Shown here: piece after piece, positions 13,551-41,539 of the stretch
Position numbering within the stretch: the first letter of the stretch is position 1
How the letters are laid out: each line of letters starts with the position of its first letter
Assembly (NCBI GenBank): GCA_035540375.1
Contig: DATLGO010000017.1
Span: forward strand, 1 to 54,074
Reading direction: 5' to 3'
Source: Candidatus Thermoplasmatota archaeon
GTDB lineage: Archaea > Thermoplasmatota > SW-10-69-26 > JACQPN01 > JAJPHT01
Length of the DNA: 54,074 nt
Program-made: the position numbers and the translations under genes
The notes under the pieces: model-generated
Database searches by the model: none
Seen by the model: only the letters and a program-made list of their open reading frames with translations
Told to the model about the DNA's origin: nothing

Positions 13551-13605
13551 CGTCGTGCTATCGTGTCGCGCGTCATGAAACCTTGGCCGCAACGGCCGCG
13601 GCGGA

Positions 13606-14796: not shown

Positions 14797-14882
14797 CTCC
14801 GCCTCCCATCCGCGAGGACCGCGCGCGGGCATCAAGGTTTGGCCGCCGAAGACTCAAGGTCGAGGGACACCCTCGCCGGGTC

Positions 14883-16694: not shown

Positions 16695-18659
16695 CTACCG
16701 CGATTTCCGGCGAAGGATGGCAAGCGCGGCCGCGATCGCGATGAAAAGCCCCGCGGCCGGCCCCGGGATCGGGATTCCGCCGACCGATTCCTGGGGCCGC
16801 TCCTCGAGCGTCACCGCGATGGGCGTCTCGCGATCGCGCACGATGGCCCCCTCGACCCCTCCGGCGCCGAAGCCTTCGCGAGAGGCCTCGATCGTCGCGC
16901 GCCCGGCCTTTGCCGCGAAGCGCGCGGTGCCGTTCGCGTCCGACGTTGCCTCCATCGTTCCGTTCGGGGTCTTTGCCACCACCTTCGCGCCCGCGATCGG
17001 CGCTCCGGTCGCGTTCACGACGCGGACGATCAGCGTTCCGACGGGCGCCTTCGCGGGGGTCTTCTTCTCGCCCGCGCCCGAGAAGAGCGGGCCGTCGAGG
17101 GCGTGGTTGAAGCGCTCGTTGTTCGAATAGGCCGCGTCGAGCGCGACGTTCGTGTCGTACACCATGATCGCGCCTTCGCGGCACCCGACGTCGAGCTTCG
17201 GACCCGCGCATCCCTCAGCGCCCCGCATGAGCGGGATGACGACCTGGGCGTACCCGTCGCCCGCGATGTCGGCGACGATGGGTCCGCGGCTCGCCTTCCA
17301 CCCGCCGGGCGGGAACGGGATCCAGCCCTTCTCCTCGCCCGTCTTCGGGTCGTGAAGCGCGAGGCCGTCGAGCGCGAACTTCTGCGCCTCGACGACGATC
17401 TCCTGCGCGCCGTCTCCGTTCACGTCCGCGATCGCGACGTTCTTGTTGCTCCACGTCGCGTCCACGCCGACGCGCCACAGGAGCTTGCCGTTCCGCCCGT
17501 CGAGCGCGAAGAGGTTCGACGGGCGACCCGTCGTCTCCCAGTTGCCCGGATTGTGGCCGATCGTGTTCCAGTCGATCATGATCACGTCGAGCGTGCCGTC
17601 GCCGTTCGCGTCGAAGGGCGCCGCCTGCATGTAGTTCAGCGGGTTCGCCTCGGGGAAGCTCGACTTCCAGAGAAGCGACCCGTCGGGCTTGAGCGCGTAG
17701 ATCGTCTGGTGCTGCTTCGTGTGCCAATCGGGCGCGCCGCCCTTCACGGCCTGGCGGGCCGCGAAGACGACGACGCGCGTGCCGTCCCCCTTGAGATCGA
17801 GCACCGCCGGCGCGACCGGAATCGATGCGGGGCGGGACCCGTGGGCCTTCGAGGAGAAGCTCCACCGGAGGTCCCCGGTGGCGACGTCGTAGGCCATCAC
17901 GTCGCCGCCGTCCGTGGCGAACACGGCCTCGACGCGGCCGTCGCCGTCGAGGTCCTGCGCGATCGGCCCGCCGTTGCCGTCGTACGAGAGATTGTACCAT
18001 GCGTACGTGTTGTTGCCCGTGAGCGCGTACTGCCCCGGCATGCCGTCGGTCTGCAGCAGGATGATGGTTCCGCCGCCTGGCGCCTTCGCGAGGTACGGCG
18101 CGCCGTCCGCCGAAGGCTGGCCCGGCCAAGGGTCCGCCTTCGGGAAGCGCTTGGTGTAGTTCGCGTCGAGCTCCGTCGGGTTCGGCGTCCGCTGCCAGAG
18201 CTTCGTGAACGCGAACGTCCCGTCCGGGTTGCGTCCCGCGAACTCGTACACGGTGACGACGCCCATGCTGTTCACCGACACGAGGTCGGGCTTCCCGTTC
18301 GCGTTCACGTCCCCCACCGCGACGCCGTTGATGTCGCGCGCGGCCCAGCCGGGCCAATGCATCGTTTCCAGGTCCGCGAGCACGCGCCCGTCGAGCACGT
18401 CGAGGACGTAGAGACGCAGGTTGTCGTTCTGGGAGATGAGCTCCATGCGCCCGTCCCCGTCGAGGTCGTGGAGGTTCATCTGGTGCGTGTCGAACGCCAT
18501 GAAGGGGTGCAGGGGATTCGCGACGGCGTTCGTCACGAGGAGACGCTCCACGAGCGCGCCGCCCATGCCCGTCGGGCCCGGACGCTCGGCGGCGGTCCCA
18601 GGCGGGACGGCGGCGGCGACGAGCGCGGCGAGAAGGAGGACCGTGACGATGGGACGCAA
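16695..18659 (-). CDS. Secreted FG-GAP repeat protein with C-terminal anchor
   Basis: About 654 residues. A signal peptide ([19 protein letters not shown]) leads a beta-propeller with at least six Ca-binding loops of FG-GAP type, for example [44 protein letters not shown] and [12 protein letters not shown] carboxypeptidase-regulatory-like beta sandwich follows ([18 protein letters not shown]), then a short stalk and a C-terminal tag: PIPGPAAG, a hydrophobic helix and RRKSR. The tag resembles PGF-CTERM-type archaeal sorting signals but differs from the PTPELPT tags elsewhere in the window. Start uncertain: TTG 18659 sits just before the signal peptide and TTG 18716 is possible. A longer frame into the G-rich array is an artefact. 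Likely a surface adhesin or structural protein. Confidence 0.8.
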
Positions 18660-18721
18660 GGGGAGACACCCGGGCGCGACGCCGGGGGAGGAGGCGGCCT
18701 CACCGTTGTGGTACAACGAGG

Positions 18722-18898
18722 GAATCGGGACCGGGAGCCGGGAGCCGGGAGCCGGGAGCCGGGAGCCGGGCGCCGGGCCCGGGAGCCGGGACCGGGAGCC
18801 GGGCGCCGGGCCCGGGAGCCGGGAGCGGGCGTCGGGTCCGGGACCGGGTCCGGGACCGGGAGCGGGACCGGGACCGGGTCCCGGCCCCCAGCCCCCAA
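18722..18898 (+). repeat. G-rich short tandem array upstream of rpsL
   Basis: About 177 nt of GGG tracts separated by 3-4 nt on the plus strand. It begins with five exact CCGGGAG heptamers, then mixes CCGGGAC, CCGGGCG, CCGGGTC and related units. The spacing satisfies the G-quadruplex rule many times over. It fills the space between the FG-GAP gene (minus) and the rpsL promoter (plus), ending 4 nt before the TATA box. The rest of the gap 18660-19020 holds the rpsL promoter and leader. A related array, inverted, lies before fusA. Confidence 0.9.
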
Positions 18899-18901
18899 CC
18901 G

Positions 18902-18909
18902 TTATATAT
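18902..18909 (+). promoter_or_regulatory. TATA box of rpsL-rpsG
   Basis: TTATATAT with a purine/C-rich BRE-like CCAACCG just upstream. Transcription should start near 18930, giving a leader of about 90 nt with a weak 6-bp hairpin (CTCCGG 18920-18925 with CCGGAG 18938-18943) and a GGTGA Shine-Dalgarno near 19012. Confidence 0.7.
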
Positions 18910-19020
18910 TCCAACCCGCCTCCGGCGCCTTACTCCACCGGAGAGCGCAGCTTGCGGACCTCCCCTTCGCGGGAACCGTTCGGCCTTTCCCTCGGAGCTG
19001 TACAGACGCCAGGTGAACAC

Positions 19021-20616: not shown

Positions 20617-21501
20617 TCACGGGCGGCGCCGCGCGGCGACACCCACGATCGCGAGCCCCGCGAGCCCGAGCGCGAGCGTCGGGAGCTCGGGCGTCGGGAG
20701 CGCGGAGCTTCCGGACGGTTGCGCAACGGAAGGCGACGACAAGGCCCGCGGTCCCTCGAGGCCACCGGTGACGGCCGAGACCGCGTAGTAGTAGCTGGCG
20801 CCGGGCGCAAGGCCCCGGTCTTCGTAGCGGAGATCCGCCGTGAACGCGATCAGCATCAGCGCATCCGCGCGAACGCCCCGGTAGACGCGGTATCCCGTCG
20901 CCCCCTCGACGGCGTCCCACGTCAGGTCCATCGAGCCCGGTTCGGGGCCAGGCACCGCAAGCAGGTTCTGGGGCGCGCCCGGCGGGGTCGGCAGGACGGT
21001 CTCATCGACGAAATCGCCCTCCTCGCCGATCCCGACCGAGGGCGAAGCGCCGCCGGTTTCAAACGCATTCTCGGAGGAGGCCTGCGTTCGCGCTCCGCGC
21101 GAGGGCGCAACCGGGGGCGTCGCATCCGACGCGTCGTCGGCGCCGTCGTCGCCCTCCCCGGAAACGCCGTCCGGAGAGGTCGAGCCGACGGGGCCTTTCG
21201 GGACGCGCGCGGCGGGAGGCGCGGGCCCTGGGCCGGCCTCGTCGTCGGGTGACGCGGTCCCGACGAAGGTCGCGCCGCCCGCGACGGTGCCGACGAGGGC
21301 GTTCCAGGCCTTGAGGGCCCCGGCGACCACGTTTTCGATCAGACGGGCGACCGCGTCCGGATAGGCGATGGCCGCAAGCGAGACGCCGATGAGAAGGAGG
21401 GCGACGCCGACCGTCAGGATACGACGGCGGGGCTGGTTCGTCATGGGGATCGCGACCGCGATCCGCAGGCGAGGCCATAAGGAACCGTGGAAGCGGCGCA
21501 T
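20617..21501 (-). CDS. Fn3 surface protein with PTPELPT C-terminal tag
   Basis: About 294 residues: an N-terminal anchor helix (ILTVGVALLLIGVSLAAIA), a low-complexity Pro/Gly/Asp/Ser linker of roughly 110 residues, one fibronectin type III domain (from PGAPQNLLAVPG to SYYYAVSAVTGG), then the tag LPTPELPT, a hydrophobic helix and ARRRP at the extreme C-terminus. The tag layout (motif, helix, Arg cluster) is that of exosortase/archaeosortase substrates. ATG 21501 has a weak GGTGAGGGG Shine-Dalgarno; ATG 21444 would shorten the n-region. It lies 28 nt downstream of its paralog and is likely co-transcribed. Probable substrate of the exosortase at 33452. Confidence 0.8.
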   Translation of the reverse strand: MRRFHGSLWPRLRIAVAIPMTNQPRRRILTVGVALLLIGVSLAAIAYPDAVARLIENVVAGALKAWNALVGTVAGGATFVGTASPDDEAGPGPAPPAARVPKGPVGSTSPDGVSGEGDDGADDASDATPPVAPSRGARTQASSENAFETGGASPSVGIGEEGDFVDETVLPTPPGAPQNLLAVPGPEPGSMDLTWDAVEGATGYRVYRGVRADALMLIAFTADLRYEDRGLAPGASYYYAVSAVTGGLEGPRALSSPSVAQPSGSSALPTPELPTLALGLAGLAIVGVAARRRP

Positions 21502-21529: not shown

Positions 21530-22408
21530 TCAGGGGGCCCGGCGGCGGAGCGCGAGCCCGAGCACCGCGAAACCCGCGGCGCCCAGGACGAGCGTCGGGA
21601 GCTCGGGCGTCGGGAGGGTTTGCTCGCCCGAGGTCTGCGCGACGCTCGACGTCGTCGCGGAGAGCGGACCCGGAACGCCGCCCGTGAGCGCGGCGACGGC
21701 GTAATAATAGGTCGCGCCGGGTGAAAGCCCGGTGTCGGTGAACGTCGACGTGGACGTGGTGTCGAGGAGCGCGAGCGAGGAAGCCGTCACGCCGCGGTAG
21801 ACCGCATACGTGGTCGCCGCGGCCGGGCTCCATGCGAGATCGATCTCGCCCGGGTTCGACCCGGGCCTCGCGACGAGCCCCGAGACGAGGACGGGCGGAG
21901 GCGGCGCGACGAGCGGCGTGGGCGAAGTCGTCGACGACGACGACGACGACGTCGAGGGGCCGAGGGGCTCGTTCGATCCAGCCGGGGAGCTCGGTGGGCT
22001 CGACGCGTCATCGGTCGAGGGCTCCTGGGTCGCGTTCCCGCCCTCGCTGTTTCCTCCGGAAGGGACCGGCGAGGACCCGCGGTCGTCGTCCGGTGCGTCA
22101 TCCGGCGTGGGGCCGCCGACGGAGGGCGCCCCGGCGCCGGTCGAGGTCGGATCGAGCGCGTCCGGAGGGATGCCCGTCGACGGCCCTCCGCCCACGACCG
22201 AACCGAGGAGCAGGAGCCCCGAGGCCGAGCTGCCCGCGATGTATTGCACGATCGCGGCGGCGTGGCCGAGCGCGCGCGTGACCGCGCCTGCGACCTCGTT
22301 CGGCGCGAGCGCGAAAGCCGTCGCGAGGGCCGAAAGCAGAAGGATGAGCGTCCAGAAGACCGCCGGGAAACGGCGAGGCTTCCGGCGGAGAGACCCTGCT
22401 TCATCCAT
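21530..22408 (-). CDS. Fn3 surface protein with PTPELPT C-terminal tag
   Basis: A 292-residue paralog of the protein at 20617, with the same order: anchor helix (VFWTLILLLSALATAFALA), long Ser/Thr/Pro/Asp-rich linker with a run of Ser, an Fn3 domain, then LPTPELPT, a hydrophobic helix and LRRRAP. The linker is the kind often glycosylated in surface proteins. Twenty-eight nucleotides encoding the tag are identical in both paralogs (20673-20700 and 21589-21616). The ATG at 22408 starts 14 residues before the helix. It is divergent from the block B GT2 gene. Confidence 0.82.
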   Translation of the reverse strand: MDEAGSLRRKPRRFPAVFWTLILLLSALATAFALAPNEVAGAVTRALGHAAAIVQYIAGSSASGLLLLGSVVGGGPSTGIPPDALDPTSTGAGAPSVGGPTPDDAPDDDRGSSPVPSGGNSEGGNATQEPSTDDASSPPSSPAGSNEPLGPSTSSSSSSTTSPTPLVAPPPPVLVSGLVARPGSNPGEIDLAWSPAAATTYAVYRGVTASSLALLDTTSTSTFTDTGLSPGATYYYAVAALTGGVPGPLSATTSSVAQTSGEQTLPTPELPTLVLGAAGFAVLGLALRRRAP

Positions 22409-26871: not shown

Positions 26872-27714
26872 ATGGGACACGCCATGGGACCGGCCGGACG
26901 CAAGCCCGCGTCCTATGACCTCGCCTTCGCGGCGTTCGTGGCGGCCGCGGCCGGCATCGGGATCGTCATCACGAACCCGGTTTCGATGGTTGCGGCCGCG
27001 GTGTTGCTTGCGTGGGCGACCGGCTTCCTCGTGATTGAGACGGTGTGGCCCGGGCGCGCGGCCCCCGTCCATGGACGCGTCGAGCGCCATGCGCTCGCGG
27101 TCGGTTTCTCCCTTGTTGTCCCGCCCCTTGTTGCGGCTGCGCTGCACGTCGCAGGCAGCCTGGACCGGGCTAACTTCACCCTTGCATTCGGTTTGGTCTT
27201 CATCGGCCTTTGGGTCTCGGCGGCGCTTAGACGCGCCCGAGGCCCCTCCGAGCAGATTGCGCCGGTCCGGCCGGCGCGCGTGCCGCTTGCTCCCCGCGAG
27301 CGCGCCCTGACCATCGTGGTCCTCGTCCTCGGCATCGCCGCCGTCGCGGCCGTCGGAGCCAAAATCGCGGCGACGACGGATCCCGCGCCGCTTGCGCTTC
27401 ACGTCGTGACGTCGGAGAACCGTATTCCCCTTCACCCCCACAACGTGACGGACGCCGACTCGCGGATCCTCTTCGCCATCGTCGACGGCGGGCCGATCGC
27501 AGAAGACGTCGTGGTCGTCGCGCGGATCACCAATGGAACGTGGAGCGAGACCCGCACGCTCGCGCTCGAACCCGGCGCTCGGCGGGTTGCCGAATTCGTT
27601 CTCCCCGATCGCGAGCCCGGTCCAGCCTGGATGGAAATCACCGCGACGGGCGCCGCGACGGGCGAAACGAGGGCGCTCCGAATTCTCGTCCGTTACGGGA
27701 ATGAGGGACCTTGA
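26872..27714 (+). CDS. DUF1616-like membrane protein
   Basis: A 280-residue protein with four hydrophobic helices in the first 190 residues (two pairs) and a C-terminal extracytoplasmic beta-rich domain of about 90 residues (from LALHVVTSENRIPL to LRILVRYG). That layout matches archaeal DUF1616 proteins, often found beside glycosylation genes. ATG 26872 is used; ATG 26884 is also in frame. The stop overlaps the TTG of the flippase gene (TTGA). Role in the glycan locus is inferred from position only. Confidence 0.62.
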   Translation: MGHAMGPAGRKPASYDLAFAAFVAAAAGIGIVITNPVSMVAAAVLLAWATGFLVIETVWPGRAAPVHGRVERHALAVGFSLVVPPLVAAALHVAGSLDRANFTLAFGLVFIGLWVSAALRRARGPSEQIAPVRPARVPLAPRERALTIVVLVLGIAAVAAVGAKIAATTDPAPLALHVVTSENRIPLHPHNVTDADSRILFAIVDGGPIAEDVVVVARITNGTWSETRTLALEPGARRVAEFVLPDREPGPAWMEITATGAATGETRALRILVRYGNEGP

Positions 27715-29027
27715 GCGAATTGCGGACGCGCTTGAAACGCCTTCGGAGCGACCCGGTCCTCCAGAACACGGCGTATTTGGTGGCGAACTCGGCATCCCTC
27801 GCGGCCTTCGGCTTCGCATTCTGGATCTTCGCCGCCCGACGCTTCTCGCCCGAGGAAGTGGGCGTTGCAACGGCTCTGATCTCGACGACGCAGCTTGTGA
27901 CGCTCCTCGCCTCCGCGGGAATGAGCTTCGCCATCCTTCGGCAACTCCCCCGCGCGGATCGAGCCGAACGCGACCGCCTCGTGAACAGCGCGCTTGCGTT
28001 CACAGCCCTTTTCGGCCTCGTAGCAGGCGTCCTCGCAGGACTTGCCTCGCGGCTGATGATCCCCGCTCTCGCGGAAAGCCTTGCGACCGCGGGCTTCGTC
28101 GCGGCCTTCGCGGGACTCGTCGCGTTCCAAACGCTGAGCGGCGTCGTCGATGCCGTCTTCACGGCCGTCCAACGCTCCAGCCTTGTCTTCTGGAAGAACA
28201 ATGTGGGCAACGTATTGAAGATCGGACTTGTCGCGCTCCTTCCGGTCTCGCTGGGGGCGACCGGCGTCTTCGCCGCGAACTCAGTCCCCTTTGTCCTCAC
28301 GGTCGTGGCGAGCCTGCTCGTGGCTTTCGCTTGGATCCTGAAAGGGTATCGTGTGATGACCGCTCCGGCACTGAAGACCGCCGCGGGTCTCATGGGATTT
28401 GGCCTCGTCGCCCACGTCGCTCATCTCCTCTTCATGGCGCCGCAGCTCGTGCTCCCGCTCATCGCGCTCGAAGCGCTCGGCGCCGCGGAGACCGCCTACC
28501 TCTACACGTCCTGGAAGCTCGCTGGACTCATGTGGGTCGTGACGACGGCGGCCTCGGGGCCCCTCCTTGCCTTCGGATCCGCCAACCCCCTGCTCTATCC
28601 CGCCAAGGCGCGGAGGACCCTCGCCGTGTCCGTCGGCCTCACGCTTGGCCTTTCGATCGTCGGCCTTGTCGCGGCTCCCTTCGCGCTCGCCCTCTTCGGC
28701 GGAGATTACGCCGCAAAGAGCGCTTCCCTCGTTGCCTACCTCTTGTTCTCGAGCATCCCGCTCGGCATCTTCGCCATCTATCAAGCGAGCCTCCGCGTGT
28801 ACGCACGTACGACGGAACTCGTCGCCGCGAGCGCCGCCTTTGCGGCGCTCACGTTTGCGGCCTTTCTCTGGGTCACGGTATCGCCCACATTGGAGGGATA
28901 CGGAATGGGTTGGCTCGCGGCGACAGGGGTCGCGGGTCTCGTCGCGACCTGGCGGCTTTTCGGCCCTGACGCCATCCTCGACGCCGGGATTGCACAGGCT
29001 CCGGCGAGTGCAGGGGCGGAGGATTGA
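27711..29027 (+). CDS. Lipid-linked oligosaccharide flippase (Wzx-like)
   Basis: A 438-residue protein with about 12-14 membrane helices and the N-terminal pattern of Wzx/polysaccharide exporters (QNTAYLVANSASLAAFGFAFW, then FSPEEVGVATALIST). It is paralogous to the flippase at 4511. TTG 27711 overlaps the previous stop (TTGA), and no nearby ATG keeps the first helix. Its own stop overlaps the next ATG. It should flip the lipid-linked glycan made by block B. Confidence 0.86.
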   Translation: MSELRTRLKRLRSDPVLQNTAYLVANSASLAAFGFAFWIFAARRFSPEEVGVATALISTTQLVTLLASAGMSFAILRQLPRADRAERDRLVNSALAFTALFGLVAGVLAGLASRLMIPALAESLATAGFVAAFAGLVAFQTLSGVVDAVFTAVQRSSLVFWKNNVGNVLKIGLVALLPVSLGATGVFAANSVPFVLTVVASLLVAFAWILKGYRVMTAPALKTAAGLMGFGLVAHVAHLLFMAPQLVLPLIALEALGAAETAYLYTSWKLAGLMWVVTTAASGPLLAFGSANPLLYPAKARRTLAVSVGLTLGLSIVGLVAAPFALALFGGDYAAKSASLVAYLLFSSIPLGIFAIYQASLRVYARTTELVAASAAFAALTFAAFLWVTVSPTLEGYGMGWLAATGVAGLVATWRLFGPDAILDAGIAQAPASAGAED

Positions 29028-30076
29028 TGGACATGAAGGCAATCGACGGCGCGGAACGCCTGATGATGCGAATGAGCGAGCGCCTGCCTGCGAACGAACA
29101 CCGCATCCTGGTCCTCGGATCATTTGGCTTCGGCAATCTGGGCGATGAAGCCATTCTCAGCATGCTGCTCGATGACCTCGCGGGTCGGGACCTCACGGTC
29201 GTATCGCGCGACCCCGACGCGACGCGCGCCATGCACGGCGTCCGTGCCGTGCAGGCGGTTTCTCCTGCCTCCGGTTGGGCTGCGTGGCGAGCCGATGCCC
29301 TCGTCCTGGGAGGCGGCGGCGTCTTCAGCGGGCTCGGCGGGAAGCTTACGAAGGGTCTCGCCTACTATATGCGGGGCTTCCAAGCGATCGGGAAAGCCAT
29401 TCATTTCCACGCCCTTGGCATCTACCCGGACACGGATCCCGCGACGCTCCGCATCCTTCTCCCCGTTCTTCGAAAGGCCCGTACGCTTTCGGTCCGCGAC
29501 GAGACCTCGCACACTTTCCTCGAGAGCCTCGGCATCCCCTCGACTCAGATTCCCGATCCCGTGACGGCGCTCGAGCCCCTCGGGCGCGAGGCAGCCGTCA
29601 AGGCGCTCGAGGCTGAAGGCATCGACGCGGGCCGACCATGGATCGGCGTTTCGCCGCGCCGCGTCCGCAAGAACCAGGAGCACCTCGAACGCGAGCTTCT
29701 CGGCGCGCTCCGGGCGCTCCAGGCTCGCGGACACCCGATCCTCTTCCTTCCAACGGCCCATTTCCCATATGGGACCTACACGAACGATCTGCATTTTTCC
29801 CGAGAACTCGCCGCGAAGCTCGACCCGCAGCTGACGGGTGTCGTCGCGGGTCTGCATCACCCGAAGCTCGCCGCGGCGCTGTTCCGGATACCCCGCGTGC
29901 ACGTTCCCATGCGGCTCCATGCGATGATCTTCGCCTCGCGCGTGGGACGTCCGTCGACGGCGATCGCCTATGCGGACAAGGTCGCCGACGTCGCGGACGA
30001 GCTGGGGATCGGCCACGTTTCGATCCCTGAGCTCAATGCCGACGACCTTGTGCGTCGCGTCGAAGGTCTCCTTTGA
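29027..30076 (+). CDS. Polysaccharide pyruvyl transferase family protein (CsaB-like)
   Basis: About 349 residues. This family transfers pyruvate from PEP to sugars, forming ketals. Visible signs: VLGSFGFGNLGDEAIL near the N-terminus, VLGGGGVFSG, the SVRDETSHTFLESLG segment, and near the end the VPMRLHAMIFA block with the conserved Arg-Leu-His. ATG 29027 overlaps the flippase stop by 1 nt and has GGAGG at 29018-29022; ATG 29033 is also possible. In bacteria CsaB-type pyruvylation of cell-wall sugar anchors S-layer proteins, so a similar role in surface-protein attachment is an attractive inference here. Confidence 0.86.
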   Translation: MDMKAIDGAERLMMRMSERLPANEHRILVLGSFGFGNLGDEAILSMLLDDLAGRDLTVVSRDPDATRAMHGVRAVQAVSPASGWAAWRADALVLGGGGVFSGLGGKLTKGLAYYMRGFQAIGKAIHFHALGIYPDTDPATLRILLPVLRKARTLSVRDETSHTFLESLGIPSTQIPDPVTALEPLGREAAVKALEAEGIDAGRPWIGVSPRRVRKNQEHLERELLGALRALQARGHPILFLPTAHFPYGTYTNDLHFSRELAAKLDPQLTGVVAGLHHPKLAAALFRIPRVHVPMRLHAMIFASRVGRPSTAIAYADKVADVADELGIGHVSIPELNADDLVRRVEGLL

Positions 30077-30124: not shown

Positions 30125-31798
30125 TCACCGGATGAAGGGGACGCCGACGCCGCGACCGACCGGCTTGGCCCGACAGACGATGGCGCCTCCATTGTCGAAC
30201 ACGACGCTCGCATCGTCGCAGACCAGACCCGTGATCGTGGAAGGGGCGGCTCCCTCGAGCGCGGCATATGTCACCGCCTGCGCGGTCACGAGCCGCAAGC
30301 TGTAGAATTGCGCCTGATCGGGCGCGAGGGCTCGGCCGCCGCCTTGGAGAAGGCCCTTGGCGTCGAGCGGCGCGTTTGCCGCCGTGAAGTGGATGCCGAG
30401 CGAAGAACGATAGGCGACCTCGTCCTGGGCGTAGATGTATTCGAAGGCCTGGACCTCAGCGCCTGTCGGCCGATCATAGCTCTCGACGTAGCCGTTGCGG
30501 AGAGAGCCTGCGATGCCTGCAAGCACGAGGAGGAAGATTGCGGCGACTTTCCACGTCCGGCGCCAGTCCAGCGCGGCGTAGGACCAGCCCACGACGGCGG
30601 CGAGGGGAACGAAAAGAACGAGGATGGGACGGCTGAAGAATTTTCCACCCGCCGTGCCGACGAGGAGGGGACCCATGAAGACGCCCCACAAAATAGCGAA
30701 ACGACCAAGGTCCGATTTCCAGGCCCGCAGGACGAATGGCGCAAGGGCAAGGGCAAGGAGCGCGAGGAATGTCACGTTTGCAAGGAGGACCCATTCCGTC
30801 CCTTCGAGAAGCCTCGTGACGCCCGTCACTTCCTTGTCCTTCTCGAGCGCGTCCACGACGATGCCCCGCGCGTGGTTGAAGATCCAATCCGATCGATACG
30901 TGATCCAAGCGATCCACATCGCGAGGACGGTCCCTCCGATCTGCAAAGGGAACGCCTTCAACGCGTTCTTGACGCCGCCGACGATCGCCCCCGATTCCAT
31001 GCCGAGGACGGCGAGCAGGGCCGGGAGCACGAGCAGCGGGGAAAGGGGATGCGAGACCGTGAGCGCGGCGGCCGCGGCGAAGAACGCGACGGCAAATATG
31101 GTGCCGTCGCGGCGTCGCATCGCGAGATAGACCAGGAGCATGCCCATCGCCAGCCCATAGGATTCGGGCGCGAGGTTCGTCCGCATCCACACGAGGGGCG
31201 CAACGGCGAGGAGAACGATGAGCGAGATGCCCGTCGCGACCCCGATGACGGGAGAGGACGAGCGCGTCCGCCGCATCGCCTCGCGCAGAACCAGATAACC
31301 GAGGGCCGCGTAGGCCGCGACGCTTGCGAGCGGATATAGACGGATGAAGATCCACGGCGCAAGTCCGCTGAGGTAGTGGGCGAAGCCGACGAACGTCCAG
31401 AATCCCGGATAGGCGTCTCGGTACATGCCCGACGGGGTTCCCGCGAGCGTTTGGATCGCGATGAGAAGGTTCCGATTCGTGTCGTGCAGATGTCCATACG
31501 GGAGAAGAAGCACGACCGGGATGACGGTAAGGAAGCCGGCGGTCATGGCTGCGAGAACGCGCGTGCGAGGCCGCGTCGCGACGAACGCCGCGACGAGCGC
31601 GTTTGCATACGCCGCGAAATACGCCGGCGGCATCTGAAACCAGAGGGGCACGCCCGGTTCGTAACGCGGTACGGACGAGGTGACGGCGGTCACCACCGTG
31701 AGCAGCAGCGCGATGCCGAGGAGACCGAGCCCGATTTCCTCGCGCGAGACACGAAACGACGTTGCGGCATCCGAACGCAGGTCCGTGGAGAGGCTCAC
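30125..31798 (-). CDS. GT-C-like multipass membrane glycosyltransferase
   Basis: A 557-residue protein with about 12-13 membrane helices and a C-terminal soluble segment of about 110 residues. Helix pattern and length fit GT-C enzymes that use polyprenyl-linked sugars. The usual external acidic pair is not obvious in the first loop; a second loop has HDTNRN and GMYRDAYPG. It might also be a polymerase or ligase of glycans. GTG 31798 overlaps the stop of the hydrolase gene (GTGA). It is the last of four genes in the exosortase operon, which ties it to surface-protein processing or glycan attachment. Confidence 0.68.
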   Translation of the reverse strand: MSLSTDLRSDAATSFRVSREEIGLGLLGIALLLTVVTAVTSSVPRYEPGVPLWFQMPPAYFAAYANALVAAFVATRPRTRVLAAMTAGFLTVIPVVLLLPYGHLHDTNRNLLIAIQTLAGTPSGMYRDAYPGFWTFVGFAHYLSGLAPWIFIRLYPLASVAAYAALGYLVLREAMRRTRSSSPVIGVATGISLIVLLAVAPLVWMRTNLAPESYGLAMGMLLVYLAMRRRDGTIFAVAFFAAAAALTVSHPLSPLLVLPALLAVLGMESGAIVGGVKNALKAFPLQIGGTVLAMWIAWITYRSDWIFNHARGIVVDALEKDKEVTGVTRLLEGTEWVLLANVTFLALLALALAPFVLRAWKSDLGRFAILWGVFMGPLLVGTAGGKFFSRPILVLFVPLAAVVGWSYAALDWRRTWKVAAIFLLVLAGIAGSLRNGYVESYDRPTGAEVQAFEYIYAQDEVAYRSSLGIHFTAANAPLDAKGLLQGGGRALAPDQAQFYSLRLVTAQAVTYAALEGAAPSTITGLVCDDASVVFDNGGAIVCRAKPVGRGVGVPFIR

Positions 31799-32658
31799 GA
31801 GGAAGCCTCCACGGATCGCGCGGCAAAGATGTGGCCGTCGCGGCCCAAGACACGGACGACAAGCTCGCTCGGGTCGAGCCCGCGACCTGCCACGAGCTCG
31901 AGAATCCAGGCCTCGCCGGGCGCGAGGCGGTCAGGATTGTGACGGACCGCGAGGCGTTCATTTCCCGCGATGGCTTCGACCGTAAGGGACGCGATGGTGG
32001 CGGTGGCCCCGATTTCGTGACGCACCACGACGGCGATGCGGCCGGATGCGGCGTCGTAAGAGGCCCTGTCGATCCCCACGAGCGCATTCACGCGCCCCGG
32101 CGCCGGCGCGACCGCCCCCGCGGCGGCGGCGAGCGGCAGCACGGCGACGAGCGCGAGCGCAAGAACGAGGCCGCGCCGCGCCGCGAGCGCGCGGTGGCCG
32201 AGGGCGAGGATCGCGAGCAGAAAGAGGGCGAGGACGCCGACGAGGACCGGGAGGGTCCGCGCGAAGGCGAGGTGGTCGGCCGGCACGGTGTATTTCCGAG
32301 CGTCGAAGGGATAGAAAAGGGCCGCGCTCGCCGTCGCGCCGCCCGGGGGGACGGGGAGGAGGTCGAGCACGACGTGGCCGAGGAACACGACCGGAAGGGC
32401 CGCGAGGAAGCGGACGGCGGCGGGCGACGCCCCCCGGGCGCGCGCGACGAGGTAGGCCGCGGTCGGCAGGACGGCGAGAACGAGGAGATTTGTCGTGGTG
32501 CCGCGCGCGACGAGTCCCGGGATCGGGAGATGGTCGAGGTCGGGCGCGAGGCCGGCGCCGATCGCGAGAACGAGCCAGCGGCCGCGCAGTCCCATCGCCC
32601 AGGCGAGCGCGAGGCTCGCGACGGCATGGACCCAGACCTCGCTCGTCGGCTCACCCAC
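31795..32658 (-). CDS. YdjM-like membrane metal-dependent hydrolase
   Basis: A 287-residue protein. The first 180 residues contain about five helices with PDLDHLP and GHVVLDLLP, the His/Asp motifs of the YdjM/DUF457 (membrane-bound metal-dependent hydrolase) family. A C-terminal extracytoplasmic domain of about 90 residues, beta-rich, follows. GTG 32658 abuts the stop of the EpsI-like gene with no gap. YdjM-like proteins are often linked to envelope genes, but their substrates are unknown. The added C-terminal domain is unusual for the family. Confidence 0.7.
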   Translation of the reverse strand: MGEPTSEVWVHAVASLALAWAMGLRGRWLVLAIGAGLAPDLDHLPIPGLVARGTTTNLLVLAVLPTAAYLVARARGASPAAVRFLAALPVVFLGHVVLDLLPVPPGGATASAALFYPFDARKYTVPADHLAFARTLPVLVGVLALFLLAILALGHRALAARRGLVLALALVAVLPLAAAAGAVAPAPGRVNALVGIDRASYDAASGRIAVVVRHEIGATATIASLTVEAIAGNERLAVRHNPDRLAPGEAWILELVAGRGLDPSELVVRVLGRDGHIFAARSVEASS

Positions 32659-33459
32659 CTAAGCGGATCCGGCGATCTTCGAGGCGAGATACTCGGCGAC
32701 GGTGGCGCTGCCCTGGCGCTCGCTGAAGACGAAGAGGCGGGGCACGACCTCGCCCATGAGGTCCATCATGATGCCGCGATGCGCGGAGTAGTCGCCCTCG
32801 GCGGGCACGAACATGCTGACGCGGATCCACGCGATGCGGTCCGTCACGTCGCGCTTCTCCTCTTTCATGTAGAAGTAGAGGTTCAGTTCGCGCTGCGTGG
32901 CGCCGTCCTTCGTGGTGCGCTCGACGACGAGCTCCTTCGCTTCGATCGCGCCCTTGAACACCCGCCCCTCGCGCTCCGAGAGCCACCCGCTCTCGGCCCA
33001 GCTCGAATCCTTGACGGGAACCGTGACGGTGGTGGTGAGCTCGTCGCGGATCGTGAAGCCCTGCGCCTTGTAGCAGACGGGCGCGGGGTGGAAGCTCGAC
33101 ACGTTCGTGGACTGGATGATGAGCAGGCTCACCGGCACGTAGACCCCGGGCGCGCGGTAGTCGCGGCTGAGGAGAAGGTCGGTCGAGAGCAGCTCCTGCA
33201 GGAAGTTCCAGTCGTATTCGTACGACATGTTCCAGCGGCCAAGCGACGTCGGGAAGTCGCGCAGGCTCTCGGGGTCGCCGATCGGGTGCTTCGTGTCGAC
33301 GAATTGCCGCTTCTCGCGTTGGCCAGACTTCAGCTCCGTGTCGATGAACGTGACGCCGCCCGTCTGGAAGGCGTCGACGGGGGACGCGAGGACGACGGCG
33401 AAGACGGTGGCGCCGAGCACCACGTAGAGCGGGCGGTAGTTCGGTTTCGTCTCAGCCAT
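32659..33459 (-). CDS. EpsI-like exosortase-associated protein
   Basis: A 266-residue protein anchored by one N-terminal helix (about residues 11-26). The rest is outside the membrane. It carries the EpsI hallmark: FPTSLGRWNM (residues 69-78), a DLLLSRDYRAPG stretch, VSLLIIQ and SSFHPAPVCYKAQGF with His124 and Cys129. In bacteria EpsI follows exosortase genes or is fused to them, and is needed for exopolysaccharide/PEP-CTERM systems; its chemistry is unproved. Here its start overlaps the exosortase stop by 8 nt. Finding it beside an archaeal exosortase is notable. Confidence 0.8.
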   Translation of the reverse strand: MAETKPNYRPLYVVLGATVFAVVLASPVDAFQTGGVTFIDTELKSGQREKRQFVDTKHPIGDPESLRDFPTSLGRWNMSYEYDWNFLQELLSTDLLLSRDYRAPGVYVPVSLLIIQSTNVSSFHPAPVCYKAQGFTIRDELTTTVTVPVKDSSWAESGWLSEREGRVFKGAIEAKELVVERTTKDGATQRELNLYFYMKEEKRDVTDRIAWIRVSMFVPAEGDYSAHRGIMMDLMGEVVPRLFVFSERQGSATVAEYLASKIAGSA

Positions 33460-34354
33460 TCCGGTACACCTTCGCTTCGATCTTGATGAGGAGCGCGCGC
33501 AGGGCGAGGACGCCCGCGAACGCGACGAGGAAGAGGAAGAGGCTCGAGAGCCCGTGGAGGAAGGACTGGCTGACCTCGGGACCCCAGACGACGCCCACCC
33601 AGATGCTCGTCGCGACCCGCAGCACGTTCGCGGCGAGCGCGATGGGGACCGCGGCGAGGATGAGGAGGCCGCGCGAGACGTTCCTGAGCGGCGAGACGCC
33701 CGCGACGAACGTGCCGAGCGTGAGGATGCTGATGAGGCTCGAGAGGCCGCTGCAGAGCGGGATGACCTCGAAGCGCAGGTCGCCGGCCTGGATGATGAAG
33801 TTGTCCTGCACGAACGAGATGCCCGTCACCGCGAGCACCTTCGTCGTGCCCCAGACCGCGAGCTTCTGGAGCTCGACGCCGATCTCGAGCAGGCCGGGGA
33901 GCGGGACTGCGAGCAGGAGGAAGAGCGCGGGTCCCGCAAGCGGAAGGGCGCTCTTCGGGCCGATCACGTAGACCGCGACGCCCCAGAGCGCGGCGATGAG
34001 GGAAAGCGAGTAGACGAAGGGATCGGCGAGGGTTGCTGCGGTCGCGTAGAGGAGGATCGCGGGCGCAAGGAAGAGCACGGCCCGGGTCGCGCCCGCGCCC
34101 TGGCCTGCGCCGAACCGCGCGCGGACGCGCCACGCAAGGAACGTCGCGAGGAGGGGGACGAGGATGCCATGACCGTAGTATTCGTCGTTCATCCACGCGT
34201 TGGCGAGCCAGCCGAGGGTGGGCTCGTACAGGAAATAGAGTCCCAGCGCGATCACGAGGAGCGGGATCGCGTGTGACTTGAGCGCCCGCGCCGCCGCGAG
34301 GGCCTCGCGGACGAGGCGCGCCTCGAGTCGGGTGGACGACTGGCCCGGGTGCAT
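33452..34354 (-). CDS. Exosortase/archaeosortase family transpeptidase
   Basis: A 300-residue protein with about eight membrane helices. The catalytic residues of the family are all present: Cys201 in PLCSGLSSL, Arg246 in NVLRVATS and His267 in SFLHGLSS. The first conserved region, EYYGHGILVPLLATFLAW, follows helix 1. These enzymes cleave C-terminal sorting tags and probably transfer the protein to a membrane lipid. It is the only such enzyme in the window and is therefore the candidate processor of the PTPELPT-tagged proteins. ATG 34354 lies 27 nt below a TTTTAAT box, so the mRNA is probably leaderless. It heads a four-gene operon with EpsI-like, hydrolase and GT-C genes. The EpsI partner and motifs are closer to bacterial XrtA-type than to classical ArtA. 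Confidence 0.92.
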   Translation of the reverse strand: MHPGQSSTRLEARLVREALAAARALKSHAIPLLVIALGLYFLYEPTLGWLANAWMNDEYYGHGILVPLLATFLAWRVRARFGAGQGAGATRAVLFLAPAILLYATAATLADPFVYSLSLIAALWGVAVYVIGPKSALPLAGPALFLLLAVPLPGLLEIGVELQKLAVWGTTKVLAVTGISFVQDNFIIQAGDLRFEVIPLCSGLSSLISILTLGTFVAGVSPLRNVSRGLLILAAVPIALAANVLRVATSIWVGVVWGPEVSQSFLHGLSSLFLFLVAFAGVLALRALLIKIEAKVYRNG

Positions 34355-34384: not shown

Positions 34385-34548
34385 GCGATATGGAAGAGGC
34401 CTCCACATGGCCCCTGAACGGGTTTTGTCGAAACCCCGCCCGGACGCACCCGAAATGGAGGTGACTTCTAGCTCAGTCGTCGAGAGCCGGCGTTCCGAAA
34501 CGCTTTGCCGCCGGTTACATGCTTACCCCCCACGGGCCTCAGGGCTCA

Positions 34549-34560: not shown

Positions 34561-35229
34561 ATGAACAAGGGACACGTCGTCAAGGCCGCGATGGTCGCGC
34601 TCGCGGTTCTCGTTGGCTCATCGGGCACGGCTCAGGCCGCGTCCCAGACCTGGTATCTCGATTTCAACGGAACCGTCTCGTCCGAGGCCATCCGCGGCTC
34701 CCCGCCGGAGCAGTGGCAGACCTCGATCGCCGATGGCGGCCTCTACTACTGGTTCGAGCCGAACGCGAACACGGCCAACGTGAACCTGGCGGACGATCTC
34801 TGGACCTACTCGCTGCGCCTCGTCACGCATGCGACGGGCTCGTTCAAGCTCCACGTCGGCAAGGGTGCCGTCGCGAACGGCGAGGCCGTCCCGGCGTCCT
34901 TCCAGTCGTTCCATGAAGTGACCGTCGCCACGTTCGGAACCGCGACGCTCTACACGGGCTCGCTCGTCCACAACGCCTCGGCCGGCGACTTCTGGATCCA
35001 CCAGGGCGAGCACCTCATGTTCGCCCTCGAGAATGTCCCGGACGGGGACCAGGGCTCGAAGCAGGCGAACCAACGCCGCACGGTGATCGTCCAGACGGGC
35101 GACGAGGCCTCCTGGTTCGCCTCGCCCGCGAGCGACCCCGGCATCCCCACGCCGGAGCTCCCCACGGTGCTCCTCATGGCGGCCGGCGTCGGCCTCTTCG
35201 CCTTCGTAGCGCTGCGCCGCAAGGCGTGA
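34561..35229 (+). CDS. Secreted protein with PTPELPT C-terminal tag
   Basis: A 222-residue protein with a signal peptide (VVKAAMVALAVLVGSSGTAQA, cleavage near residue 26) and a beta-rich mature domain starting ASQTWYLDFNGT. At the extreme C-terminus it has IPTPELPT, a hydrophobic helix and LRRKA. It is a close paralog of the next gene along the whole length. Eighty-five nucleotides over the tag are identical in both. No family was recognised; the mature domain could be a structural or adhesive module. ATG 34561 sits 4 nt after a GGTTGGCA element. Probable exosortase substrate. Confidence 0.87.
   Translation: MNKGHVVKAAMVALAVLVGSSGTAQAASQTWYLDFNGTVSSEAIRGSPPEQWQTSIADGGLYYWFEPNANTANVNLADDLWTYSLRLVTHATGSFKLHVGKGAVANGEAVPASFQSFHEVTVATFGTATLYTGSLVHNASAGDFWIHQGEHLMFALENVPDGDQGSKQANQRRTVIVQTGDEASWFASPASDPGIPTPELPTVLLMAAGVGLFAFVALRRKA
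35116..35200 (+). repeat. 85-nt direct repeat encoding the tag, copy 1
   Basis: Identical base for base to 35967-36051, including synonymous positions. It encodes the FASPASDPGIPTPELPT region and most of the helix. Confidence 0.95.
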
Positions 35230-35411: not shown

Positions 35412-36083
35412 ATGAGCAAGGGGCACGTCCTCACAGCCGCCTTCGTCGCGCTCGCGGTCCTCCTCGGATCGTCCGGCACGGCGCAGGCCGCGTCCCAGAG
35501 CTGGTATCTCGACTTCAACGGCACGATCTCGTCCGTCGCCCCCAAGGGCTCCCCGCCCGACGAGTGGCAGGTCGCCGTTGCCGACGGCGGCAAGTACTAC
35601 TGGTACGAGAAATTCGCGAACACGGCCGACGTGAACCTCGGGAGCGACGTGTGGACCTTCTCGATCCAGCTCACGACGCACTTCACCGGCAAGTTCAACC
35701 TCTTCGTCGGCAAGGGTCAGCTCGTCGGCGATGAGGCCGATCCGTCCTCGTTCCAGGCCTTCCACGGCGTCACGATCTTCGCCGGCGGCACCAACACGCT
35801 CTACACGGGCAGCCTCCTGCACATGCCCATCACGGGCGACTTCGTGATCAACGAAGGCGAGCACCTCATGTTCATGCTCGACAACATCCCCGACGCGGAC
35901 CAGGGCTCGAAGAACGCGAACCAGCGCCGCACGGTCATCGTCCAGACCGGCTCGCCCGACTCGTACTTCGCCTCGCCCGCGAGCGACCCCGGCATCCCCA
36001 CGCCGGAGCTCCCCACGGTGCTCCTCATGGCGGCCGGCGTCGGCCTCTTCGGGTTCGTCGCCCTCCGCCGCCGCGCGGCGTAG
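35412..36083 (+). CDS. Secreted protein with PTPELPT C-terminal tag
   Basis: A 223-residue tandem paralog of the protein at 34561. Signal peptide (LTAAFVALAVLLGSSGTAQA), the same ASQSWYLDFNGT start of the mature part, a DQGSKNANQRRTVIVQTG segment shared with the paralog, then IPTPELPT, a helix and LRRRAA. The duplicated unit includes upstream element, gene and terminator, so a whole transcription unit was copied. The middle parts have diverged clearly while the tag DNA is identical, suggesting gene conversion at the tag. Probable exosortase substrate. Confidence 0.87.
   Translation: MSKGHVLTAAFVALAVLLGSSGTAQAASQSWYLDFNGTISSVAPKGSPPDEWQVAVADGGKYYWYEKFANTADVNLGSDVWTFSIQLTTHFTGKFNLFVGKGQLVGDEADPSSFQAFHGVTIFAGGTNTLYTGSLLHMPITGDFVINEGEHLMFMLDNIPDADQGSKNANQRRTVIVQTGSPDSYFASPASDPGIPTPELPTVLLMAAGVGLFGFVALRRRAA
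35967..36051 (+). repeat. 85-nt direct repeat encoding the tag, copy 2
   Basis: Perfect copy of 35116-35200; flanking sequence diverges at once on both sides. Confidence 0.95.
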
Positions 36084-36200: not shown

Positions 36201-36491
36201 ATGACGCCGATCGCGCTTGCTTTCTCGAGCTTCGCGAATCCCGTCACCGCGGAGGTCGCGTCGAGCGCTCCCGGCGTCGCGACGCTCTACGGCGCGACGG
36301 CGGCCCTCCTCCTCGTGGTCGGTCTCGTCCTGCGCGAAGTCCTCGTCGTCTACGCCGCGGGGCAGCGCGAGCGCGGGACGCTCAAGGCCGAAGCCGCGGA
36401 CCACGTCTCGACGGCGGCGCACATCGCGCTCGTGCCGCTCGCCGCCGTGTTCCTCGTGGCCTTCGCCCTCCAGGTGCTCGAAACCCTGTAA
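36201..36491 (+). CDS. Small two-helix membrane protein
   Basis: A 96-residue protein with two hydrophobic helices (about VATLYGATAALLLVVGLVL and HIALVPLAAVFLVAFALQVL) joined by a charged loop (GQRERGTLKAEAADHV). No family was recognised. The start is placed at ATG 36201 because a TATA-like box lies just upstream. It stands between the tagged-protein genes and a convergent secreted-protein gene. Function unknown. Confidence 0.68.
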   Translation: MTPIALAFSSFANPVTAEVASSAPGVATLYGATAALLLVVGLVLREVLVVYAAGQRERGTLKAEAADHVSTAAHIALVPLAAVFLVAFALQVLETL

Positions 36492-37208: not shown

Positions 37209-37907
37209 GTGACGACAGTGAACAGGATCGCGCTCGCGCTCGTGACGGTGCTCATTCTCGCGCTTCCGACCGCGGCGGCGACGTACCAATCTCCCCCCAA
37301 CAGCGTCGAGCGGTGGACGCTTGCGGGATCCGGCACCTCGCCCACGGCCCCGTTCACCATGTTCCGCGTCATCCCGCAGGCCGCGCCCCCCTCCGGCGGC
37401 GTCGTGACGCTCGCTCCGAACGAGATCGCCTACTGGACTTCCAACGAGTCCGCCCTCGCCAACTTCGAGATGGGCGGCGGCGGCCGCACCTTCACGGTGC
37501 GCCTCCAGATCCGCGCCGGTTCGAACCTCGAGGTCGCCGTGGGCGTCTTCAACGCCACGTTCACGCCCTGCGGCGCGCCCCAGCAGATCAACGTCGGCGC
37601 GGCCGGCACCCTCCCGCCGCTTGAGATCGTCGACCAGACGCGCGCGGAGATCTTCACCGCCTCGTTCCAGCCGGCCTCCTGCCCCGTGAAGAAGGGCGAG
37701 ACCTTCGCGATCGCGGTGAAGGCCCTCGGAACGCCGGCCCGCATCGGCACGGAGGACGCCCAGCGCATCAACGGCGCGCCCGTTCCGCGCAGCTCCGTCT
37801 CCTACGCCTTCACGCCGCCCGCATGGCCGACGCCTGAGCTCCCGACCGTCGCGCTCTCGATCGTCGGTCTCGGGATGGCGGCCTTCGCCGTCTCGCGCCG
37901 CCGCTGA
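37209..37907 (+). CDS. Secreted protein with PTPELPT C-terminal tag
   Basis: A 232-residue protein with a signal peptide (RIALALVTVLILALPTAAA), a beta-rich mature domain with two Cys (FTPCGAP and ASCPVKKG) and the C-terminal WPTPELPT, hydrophobic helix and SRRR. The mature domain is not obviously related to the pair at 34561/35412, although similar in size and beta-richness, so the tag is shared by different protein families. GTG 37209 is used; GTG 37218 is a close alternative. A hairpin follows the stop. Probable exosortase substrate. Confidence 0.83.
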   Translation: MTTVNRIALALVTVLILALPTAAATYQSPPNSVERWTLAGSGTSPTAPFTMFRVIPQAAPPSGGVVTLAPNEIAYWTSNESALANFEMGGGGRTFTVRLQIRAGSNLEVAVGVFNATFTPCGAPQQINVGAAGTLPPLEIVDQTRAEIFTASFQPASCPVKKGETFAIAVKALGTPARIGTEDAQRINGAPVPRSSVSYAFTPPAWPTPELPTVALSIVGLGMAAFAVSRRR

Positions 37908-38506: not shown

Positions 38507-39523
38507 GTGGCGGAGGGACTGACGGACGTCGTCTGCGCCGCCTGCGGCGCGCGCACCTCGGTCCCCCTCGAAGGCGCCGGTCGGTTCGTCGTGAAATGCC
38601 GCGCCTGCGGAAAGCGCGGCGTCGTCGACGTCGCGCCGGAGGCGCGCACGCGCGGCAGGCCCGCGGAGCTCAAGCGCGTTGCGCGTTTCACGGCGTCCCC
38701 GGTGTTCGAGCGCATCTACCACCGGCTCGAGGACGTGTCGTCGCACGTTCCCGCGAACCGGTGGGAGATCGTCGGCGTCTACTTCGGCGTGACCGCGCTC
38801 GCCGAAGCGGCCGTGTACGTCAATCCCTATTACGGATTCCTCCTCCACGCCGTCGTCCTCTTCGGCCTCCTCATCCACGCGGGCGCCCTCTGGAACCGCA
38901 GCGAACCGTTGAGCCGGCTCGCGGTCGCGATCTCGGTCCTGCCCGTGATCCGGCTCGTGAGCCTCGCGATCCCGCTGTCGCAGTTCTCGTTCCTCCAATG
39001 GTTCCTCATCCTCGGCGTCGTCGTCTCGCTCGCGACGATCACCGCCCTCGGCGTTCTCGGCGAATCCGCCCGAGCGATGGGGCTTCGCGCGAGCGAGCCC
39101 CGCCACCGCGCGCTCGAGATCGGCGTCGTCGCGCTCGGCGTTCCGCTCGGCCTCATCGAGTACCACATCCTCGCGCCGAGCGCGCTCGTGCCGAACGCGA
39201 GTCTGCCCGCCCTCGTCGGACCCGCCCTCATGATGATCGTGTTCGGCGGCGTCCTCGAGGAGCTCATTTACCGCGGCCTGCTCCTCAGGACGCTCCTCGG
39301 ACCCTTCGGAACCGCGGGCGCGGTCGCGATTCCCGCGCTCGCGAACGCCATCCTCGCGATCGCCTACGGCTCGGCCGCGATGGTCTTCGTCGTCCTCGTC
39401 GCGGGCCTCGCCTTCGGCCTCGTCGCCCGGCGCACCGGAAGCGTCGTCGGCGTGGGCCTCTCGCACGGCGTCGCGAACACGCTGCTGTTCGTCGTCCTTC
39501 CGGTCACCGGGATGCCGTTCTGA
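38507..39523 (+). CDS. CPBP-family intramembrane protease with zinc ribbon
   Basis: A 338-residue protein. The first 45 residues hold a zinc-ribbon pattern CAAC...CRAC. About eight helices follow, with the CPBP/Abi motifs: EELIYRGLL (Glu-Glu-x3-Arg) and GLSHGVANTLLF with the conserved His. The family includes Rce1-like prenyl-protein proteases and bacteriocin-immunity proteins. GTG 38507. It is probably co-transcribed with the HTH gene. Substrate unknown; a role in processing surface proteins is possible but unsupported. Confidence 0.85.
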   Translation: MAEGLTDVVCAACGARTSVPLEGAGRFVVKCRACGKRGVVDVAPEARTRGRPAELKRVARFTASPVFERIYHRLEDVSSHVPANRWEIVGVYFGVTALAEAAVYVNPYYGFLLHAVVLFGLLIHAGALWNRSEPLSRLAVAISVLPVIRLVSLAIPLSQFSFLQWFLILGVVVSLATITALGVLGESARAMGLRASEPRHRALEIGVVALGVPLGLIEYHILAPSALVPNASLPALVGPALMMIVFGGVLEELIYRGLLLRTLLGPFGTAGAVAIPALANAILAIAYGSAAMVFVVLVAGLAFGLVARRTGSVVGVGLSHGVANTLLFVVLPVTGMPF

Positions 39524-41113: not shown

Positions 41114-41206
41114 TCCGCCGAGCGCGAGGAACCTGGTGGCGGAGCCCACCTTGACAGCCTCCCGTCACCCGGACGCGACCCGGGAGGGATCAACGGTTTG
41201 CGCGCC

Positions 41207-41440
41207 CCGTCCCGGACCCGGTCCCGGACCCGACGCCCGGCGCCCGGTCCCGACGCCCGGCGCCCGGTCCCGACGCCCGGCGCCCGGTCCCGGACCCGCC
41301 ACCCGGCACCCGGCTCCCGGTCCCGGTCCCGGCTCCCGAGGCCCGACACCCGGTCCCGACGCCCGACACCCGGCACCCGAAGCCCGGCGCCCGGTCCCGA
41401 TGCCCGGCACTCGGTCCCGGTCCCGGCCCCGCCACCCGGC
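41207..41440 (-). repeat. G-rich short tandem array upstream of fusA
   Basis: About 234 nt of 6-7-nt units, G-rich on the minus strand (CCGGGAC, CCGGGCG, TCGGGAC, CCGGGTC and similar), the same family as the array at 18722 but inverted relative to the downstream gene. GGG tracts are spaced 3-4 nt apart. It ends about 30 nt before the fusA TATA box. No reading frame in it is credible as protein. Confidence 0.9.
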
Positions 41441-41469
41441 GATCCCCGCGCGCGGGCGCTCGGAATGGT

Positions 41470-41476
41470 TTTTATA
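41470..41476 (+). promoter_or_regulatory. TATA box of fusA
   Basis: TTTTATA; transcription should start near 41500, giving a leader of about 40 nt. That leader holds a 7-bp hairpin (CCCGGGG/CCCCGGG, 41501-41517) and a GAGAGGG Shine-Dalgarno. Confidence 0.68.
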
Positions 41477-41539
41477 GGGATTGGCCCTTCAACGCTCCGT
41501 CCCGGGGTCACCCCGGGCCCCTTCCAGAGAGGGAACTCC

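What the first reader, a model, noticed from the sequence alone, without database searches (positions are those of the whole stretch)
31795..34354. Exosortase with a bacterial-type EpsI partner in an archaeal glycan locus
The enzyme keeps Cys201, Arg246 and His267, and its stop overlaps an EpsI-like gene with FHPAPVCYKAQGF. A YdjM-like hydrolase and a GT-C enzyme follow without gaps. Known archaeosortases (ArtA, ArtB, ArtC types) are, as far as I recall, not normally paired with EpsI, which belongs to bacterial exopolysaccharide/PEP-CTERM loci. The set may be a hybrid system that couples protein sorting to a glycan or lipid carrier. Leaderless archaeal promoter architecture argues against bacterial contamination.
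Basis: partly seen in the sequence, partly recalled or inferred. Interest (0 to 1): 0.9.

Follow-up and report, generated by a model that had tools for sequence, protein, structure and literature searches.

The report
Bacterial-type exosortase sorting system in archaeon

Summary
Window 33452-34354(-) is an 8-TM exosortase with Cys201, Arg246 and His267. It overlaps a DUF3485/EpsI gene (32659-33459) by 8 bp, on a contig with archaeal EF-2 and archaeal S7. The enzyme is not an archaeosortase. It passes the bacterial EpsH model (TIGR02602), misses every archaeosortase model, and placing it among the archaeosortases of its own phylum is rejected (p 0.009). EpsI routinely follows such enzymes in bacteria, so the 'hybrid' reading falls. 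The surprise is a bacterial-type system in Thermoplasmatota. I found EpsI in 5 of 390 genomes there, each time overlapping the exosortase. The likely targets are secreted proteins ending in P-x-P-E-L, a TM helix and arginines: eight in this genome (five in the window), and like proteins in five relatives, in four of them beside the enzyme. All six genomes with the locus carry the tail, against 2 of 384 others; that tail profile was partly built from those genomes. Most likely a sortase-like transpeptidase with its own archaeal sorting signal; acceptor and EpsI role are unknown. A link to glycans is not conserved.

The parts
33452..34354 (-). EpsH-type exosortase, about 8 TM, Cys201/Arg246/His267
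   Evidence: PF09721 153.9 bits; TIGR02602 127.1 (cut-off 105.55); residues checked
32659..33459 (-). EpsI/DUF3485 protein, one N-terminal TM helix, FHPAPVC motif
   Evidence: PF11984 35.8 bits (cut-off 26.1); H124, C129, R99 invariant in 5 archaeal homologues
34561..35229 (+). Candidate substrate S1: signal peptide, secreted domain, IPTPELPT-TM-RRK tail; divergent from the exosortase (ORF may start at 34519)
   Evidence: ORF and tail; profiles
35412..36083 (+). Candidate substrate S2, paralogue of S1, same tail
37209..37907 (+). Candidate substrate S3, WPTPELPT-TM-RRR tail
20617..21501 (-). Candidate substrate, fibronectin-III-like domain, LPTPELPT-TM-RRR tail
   Evidence: fn3 below its cut-off
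21530..22408 (-). Candidate substrate, fibronectin-III-like domain, LPTPELPT-TM-RRR tail
36201..36491 (+). Small 2-TM protein just downstream of the substrates; also beside the locus in G037 and G007; membership in the system uncertain
   Evidence: family also in genomes without the locus
38507..39523 (+). CPBP/Rce1-type membrane protease with an N-terminal zinc ribbon; neighbour also in G037 and G007; membership uncertain
   Evidence: PF02517 47.6 bits; homologues E 1e-28 to 1e-42
31795..32658 (-). YdjM-like membrane protein (PDLDH motif), in frame directly after the EpsI TAG stop; not conserved at the other loci
30125..31798 (-). Multi-TM protein (GT-C-like by eye); not conserved at the other loci
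27711..30076 (+). Polysaccharide flippase-like (PF01943) and polysaccharide pyruvyl transferase (PF04230) genes: glycan context

Best explanation
A complete exosortase protein-sorting system of the bacterial EpsH class with its own archaeal sorting signal. Substrates are exported by an N-terminal signal peptide (inferred) and held in the membrane by a C-terminal hydrophobic helix with arginines on the inside. The exosortase would use Cys201, helped by Arg246 and His267, to attack the chain near the P-x-P-E-L motif, remove the tail and hand the protein to an acceptor at the cell surface (inferred from exosortase and archaeosortase biology). EpsI, tied to the enzyme by overlapping genes, is probably an obligate partner outside the membrane; its step is unknown. 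Shown here: enzyme class, conserved catalytic residues, gene pairing, tail architecture, co-occurrence of tail and enzyme. Not shown: cleavage, acceptor, EpsI function.
For: EpsH model passed. The archaeal enzymes form one clade at 99/97, on the bacterial side; window enzyme among the archaeosortases rejected, AU p 0.009. EpsI in 5 of 390 genomes, all five directly after the exosortase with 4-31 bp overlap; in G128 only the end of the exosortase is left at the contig edge. Tripartite tails: five in the window, three elsewhere in the genome. A tail profile built from G000 and G037 alone also found G007, G128 and G031, and G076 more weakly (E 0.0014), with nothing under E 0.01 in G001, G013 or G022. 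Candidate substrate divergent from or close beside the exosortase in the window, G007, G037, G076 and G043. Profile co-occurrence 6 of 6 against 2 of 384.
Against: EpsI is below the NCBIfam EpsI cut-off (20.7 against 42.8) though above Pfam's. The 14-row tail profile used for the 6/6 count includes tails from five of the six genomes, so that count is partly circular; only G043 was fresh. G031 and G348 have tails but no detected EpsH enzyme. Structure models were poor (pLDDT 65 and 49) and added nothing. No experiment exists.
Confidence: 0.82

Rival explanations
1. An archaeosortase that recruited a bacterial EpsI, coupling sorting to a glycan or lipid carrier.
For: Archaeal genome; polysaccharide genes nearby.
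Against: EpsH class, no archaeosortase model over cut-off; clade and AU test; the EpsI pair is ordinary for EpsH enzymes (PMC1569441); YdjM and GT-C not conserved at other loci.
Confidence: 0.05
2. The system is real, but its acceptor is a cell-surface polysaccharide made by the flanking genes: the protein is cut and linked to, or co-exported with, a glycan.
For: Flippase, pyruvyl transferase and GT4 genes flank the window locus; EPS phosphotransferase, Gmd and Fcl genes flank G076; most bacterial epsH genes lie in polysaccharide loci (PMC1569441).
Against: No such genes recognised next to G037, G007 or G128; epsH disruption left methanolan production unaffected in Methylobacillus (PMC1569441).
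Confidence: 0.2
3. The acceptor is an amino lipid such as archaetidylethanolamine, as proposed for Haloferax ArtA.
For: ArtA processing needs PssA and PssD (PMC7157517); a PS decarboxylase gene is present in the genome; a related archaeosortase in G019 is fused to a PS decarboxylase.
Against: The decarboxylase occurs in all 11 genomes tested, with or without the EpsH system, so it does not discriminate.
Confidence: 0.4
4. Assembly contamination by bacterial DNA.
For: The enzyme class is bacterial; one relative's public record (L038) is titled Proteobacteria.
Against: aEF-2 and archaeal uS7 on the window contig; archaeal CCA enzyme on the G037 contig; CDC48 and archaeosine TgtA on the G128 contig; one archaeal clade of enzymes from five genomes.
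Confidence: 0.02

Closest known systems
Bacterial exosortase EpsH/XrtA class (TIGR02602, TIGR03109)
   Same: 8-TM enzyme with Cys/Arg/His, EpsI directly downstream, tripartite C-terminal target tails
   Different: Archaeal host; below the XrtA cut-off (134 against 208); different tail motif; no XrtA-specific cohort genes recognised
XrtD/VPLPA-CTERM and the N. vulgaris plasmid exosortase with EpsI
   Same: Same gene order with 4-11 bp overlap
   Different: Only about 30% identity; different tail; archaeal enzymes form their own clade
Archaeosortases ArtA/ArtB/ArtC (PGF-, VPXXXP-, PEF-CTERM)
   Same: Archaeal, same superfamily, tripartite tails, likely the same chemistry
   Different: Not matched over cut-off (ArtC 15 bits against 100); none of the EpsI genes found in the phylum lies by an archaeosortase
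PExPT-CTERM/XrtJ (TIGR04200)
   Same: The motif PELPT fits the PExPT pattern
   Different: Tail scores 14.4 against cut-off 40, and no XrtJ match to the enzyme

Membership tests
EpsH-class exosortase (TIGR02602/PF09721) | Full-length model over curated cut-off | tested here: met
   127.1 against 105.55; 153.9 against 25.7
EpsH-class exosortase (TIGR02602/PF09721) | Conserved Cys, Arg, His | tested here: met
   C201, R246, H267 invariant in five archaeal rows
EpsH-class exosortase (TIGR02602/PF09721) | Tree position with bacterial exosortases rather than archaeosortases | tested here: met
   27-row tree; AU p 0.009 against archaeosortase placement; few bacterial references
EpsH-class exosortase (TIGR02602/PF09721) | Cleaves tripartite-tail proteins | not testable with these tools
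   Tails found, cleavage not shown
Exosortase A (TIGR03109) | Subfamily cut-off 208 bits | tested here: not met
   134.1 bits
Archaeosortase A/B/C | Subfamily model cut-offs | tested here: not met
   Only ArtC at 15 bits, cut-off 100
EpsI (PF11984) | Pfam gathering score | tested here: met
   35.8 against 26.1
EpsI (TIGR02914) | NCBIfam cut-off | tested here: not met
   20.7 against 42.8: a divergent member
PEP-CTERM (PF07589) / PExPT-CTERM (TIGR04200) | Tail model cut-offs | tested here: not met
   13.7-14.9 against 20.7; 14.4 against 40

The most novel reading that the evidence does not exclude
A separate archaeal branch of the EpsH exosortase systems with its own P-x-P-E-L sorting signal, working in a cell envelope without an outer membrane, in which EpsI delivers an archaeal acceptor (lipid or glycan) to the enzyme.
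Probability: 0.25. Interest if true: 0.75.

Novelty: new variant of a known kind. Interest (0 to 1): 0.55.

Why it matters
The founding survey of PEP-CTERM/EpsH found none in archaea and noted that the lineages without it lack an outer membrane (PMC1569441). A compact version in single-membrane archaea separates the core (enzyme, EpsI, tail) from outer-membrane and polysaccharide functions, so the unknown role of EpsI becomes testable in isolation. It also gives a new sorting signal by which to annotate archaeal surface proteins.

Tried and rejected
Named-genome scan with the enzyme returned only two archaeal loci. tblastn of the window enzyme on plasmids found nothing useful, so the G007 enzyme was used to obtain bacterial references. 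PDB sequence search gave no relative. AlphaFold models of EpsI (pLDDT 49) and the enzyme (65) with three-row alignments were too poor; fold searches gave no match under E 0.001, and the START-like hits for EpsI are not evidence. The small 2-TM gene looked like a system part, but its family is in 22 of 390 genomes, most without the locus. PS decarboxylase does not discriminate. Common descent of the whole secreted domain across loci is weak once tails are removed. Direct transfer from bacteria is not proven: a tree with all archaeal enzymes together is not rejected (p 0.24). The key 2012 archaeosortase paper was not held, so earlier mention of archaeal EpsH/EpsI cannot be excluded; an ANME survey already lists EpsH-type domains in archaea (PMC5244752).

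Full report
What is there. The window contig (54,074 bases, contig 17 of a 3.13 Mb, 97% complete genome) is archaeal: aEF-2 scores 1100 bits against 324 for bacterial EF-G, and S7 scores 267 for the archaeal/eukaryotic model against 69 for the bacterial one. A relative in the same phylum is named Candidatus Thermoplasmatota in its public record, so the phylum is taken as Thermoplasmatota. Its stop overlaps the start of a DUF3485/EpsI gene (PF11984 35.8, cut-off 26.1) by 8 bp.

Which class of enzyme. Subfamily models rank XrtA 134, XrtW and XrtD 108, XrtV 92, XrtB 76, against 15 bits for archaeosortase C and nothing for A or B. A 27-row maximum-likelihood tree puts it with G007, G037, G076 and G043 in one archaeal clade (99/97), on the side of seven bacterial enzymes; the 15 other archaeal enzymes form the other side (89/91). 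Forcing the window enzyme among them is rejected (AU p 0.009), but grouping all archaeal enzymes against the bacterial ones is not (p 0.24), so descent by recent transfer is unproven. The same genome has a second enzyme on contig 27 of archaeosortase type (TIGR04178 48 bits, ArtC 45, EpsH 25).

Pairing with EpsI. A five-row EpsI profile found clear EpsI in 5 of 390 genomes of the phylum, plus one marginal 52-residue match in G230. In all five it directly follows the exosortase with overlap: window 8 bp, G037 4, G076 4, G007 31, G128 8 (in G128 the contig begins inside the last part of the exosortase). In G043 the contig ends inside the exosortase, so EpsI there cannot be judged. Bacterial references show the same arrangement: N. 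vulgaris plasmid 11 bp overlap, Tateyamaria XrtD 4 bp. EpsI adjacent to or fused with EpsH was described in 2006 (PMC1569441). So the pairing is expected for this enzyme class.

Five window proteins end in PTPELPT, a hydrophobic helix and arginines. The exact motif pattern finds those five and one site elsewhere in the genome that lies at no recognisable protein tail. A profile of six tails (from the window genome and G037) finds three more in this genome (PTPELGS twice, PVPELPT once), one each in G007, G128 and G031, weaker ones in G076, and none under E 0.01 in G001, G013 or G022. A fourth extra hit, on contig 110, lies inside what looks like deoxyhypusine synthase and was discarded. A wider profile finds tails in 8 of 390 genomes: all six with the EpsH/EpsI locus plus G031 and G348 (Fisher p 6e-12). 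That profile was built with tails from five of the six, so only G043 is an independent recovery there; and the exosortase itself was profiled in 293 of the 390 genomes, EpsI in all 390. In the window, G007 and G076 the candidate substrate is divergently transcribed right next to the exosortase; in G037 and G043 one other gene lies between; in G128 it is on another contig. Many share an N-terminal S-Q-x-W stretch after the signal peptide, but without their tails the cross-genome similarity is weak.

How it probably works. By analogy with sortases, exosortases and Haloferax ArtA (catalytic Cys173, lipid acceptor proposed; PMC7157517), the substrate is exported, held by its tail helix, attacked by Cys201 near P-x-P-E-L, and passed to an acceptor. 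EpsI has one N-terminal TM helix and invariant R99, H124 and C129, so it could act outside the membrane beside the enzyme; its step is unknown. Lipid or glycan acceptors are both open. A PS decarboxylase gene is present but also in every genome tested. Polysaccharide genes flank the window locus and G076 but were not recognised beside the others.

The sequence reading was accurate and the archaeal origin stands. The enzyme is not an archaeosortase, so there is no hybrid; the YdjM-like and GT-C-like genes are not conserved with the pair. What remains interesting is a compact, complete bacterial-class sorting system with its own signal in single-membrane archaea.

Limits. All functions are inferred from sequence. 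Bacterial references for the tree were few and came from plasmids. Structure predictions failed to help.

Noticed in passing
L014:853-2196 (-), genome G019: An archaeosortase fused to a phosphatidylserine decarboxylase in one 447-aa ORF (PF09721 40 bits, PF02666 115 bits): fits the idea that an ethanolamine lipid is the acceptor.
   Followed up: partly
L027:725-1729 and 117-833 (own genome, contig 27): Second, archaeosortase-type enzyme next to a protein with a different tail (AIPVFTDALVGVLALAALMGAYVVMRRR): looks like a one-target system.
   Followed up: partly
window 16695-18914 (-): FG-GAP-repeat surface protein with another tripartite tail ([15 protein letters not shown]), not of the PTPEL type; N-terminus rich in GPGP and SRLPGPAPG repeats.
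   Followed up: no
window 32656-32661 (-): EpsI ends in TAG directly followed in frame by GTG of the YdjM-like ORF; the EpsI profile runs on across the stop, and the window EpsI lacks the C-terminal helix of its relatives.
   Followed up: partly
L038 (JAJPHT010000014.1): Public record titled Proteobacteria, but it is the G037 contig, placed in the same family as the window and carrying an archaeal CCA enzyme: apparently mislabelled.
   Followed up: partly
L109:3922-4965 (G031) and L106/L107 (G348): PTPEL-like tails in genomes where no EpsH-type exosortase was found; G031 is 76% complete, G348 93%.
   Followed up: partly
window 41165-41477: Low-complexity repeat ([17 protein letters not shown]-like in several frames) just upstream of EF-2.
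   Followed up: no
window 12360-14835 (-): Two neighbouring paralogous multi-TM proteins of about 410 aa.
   Followed up: no
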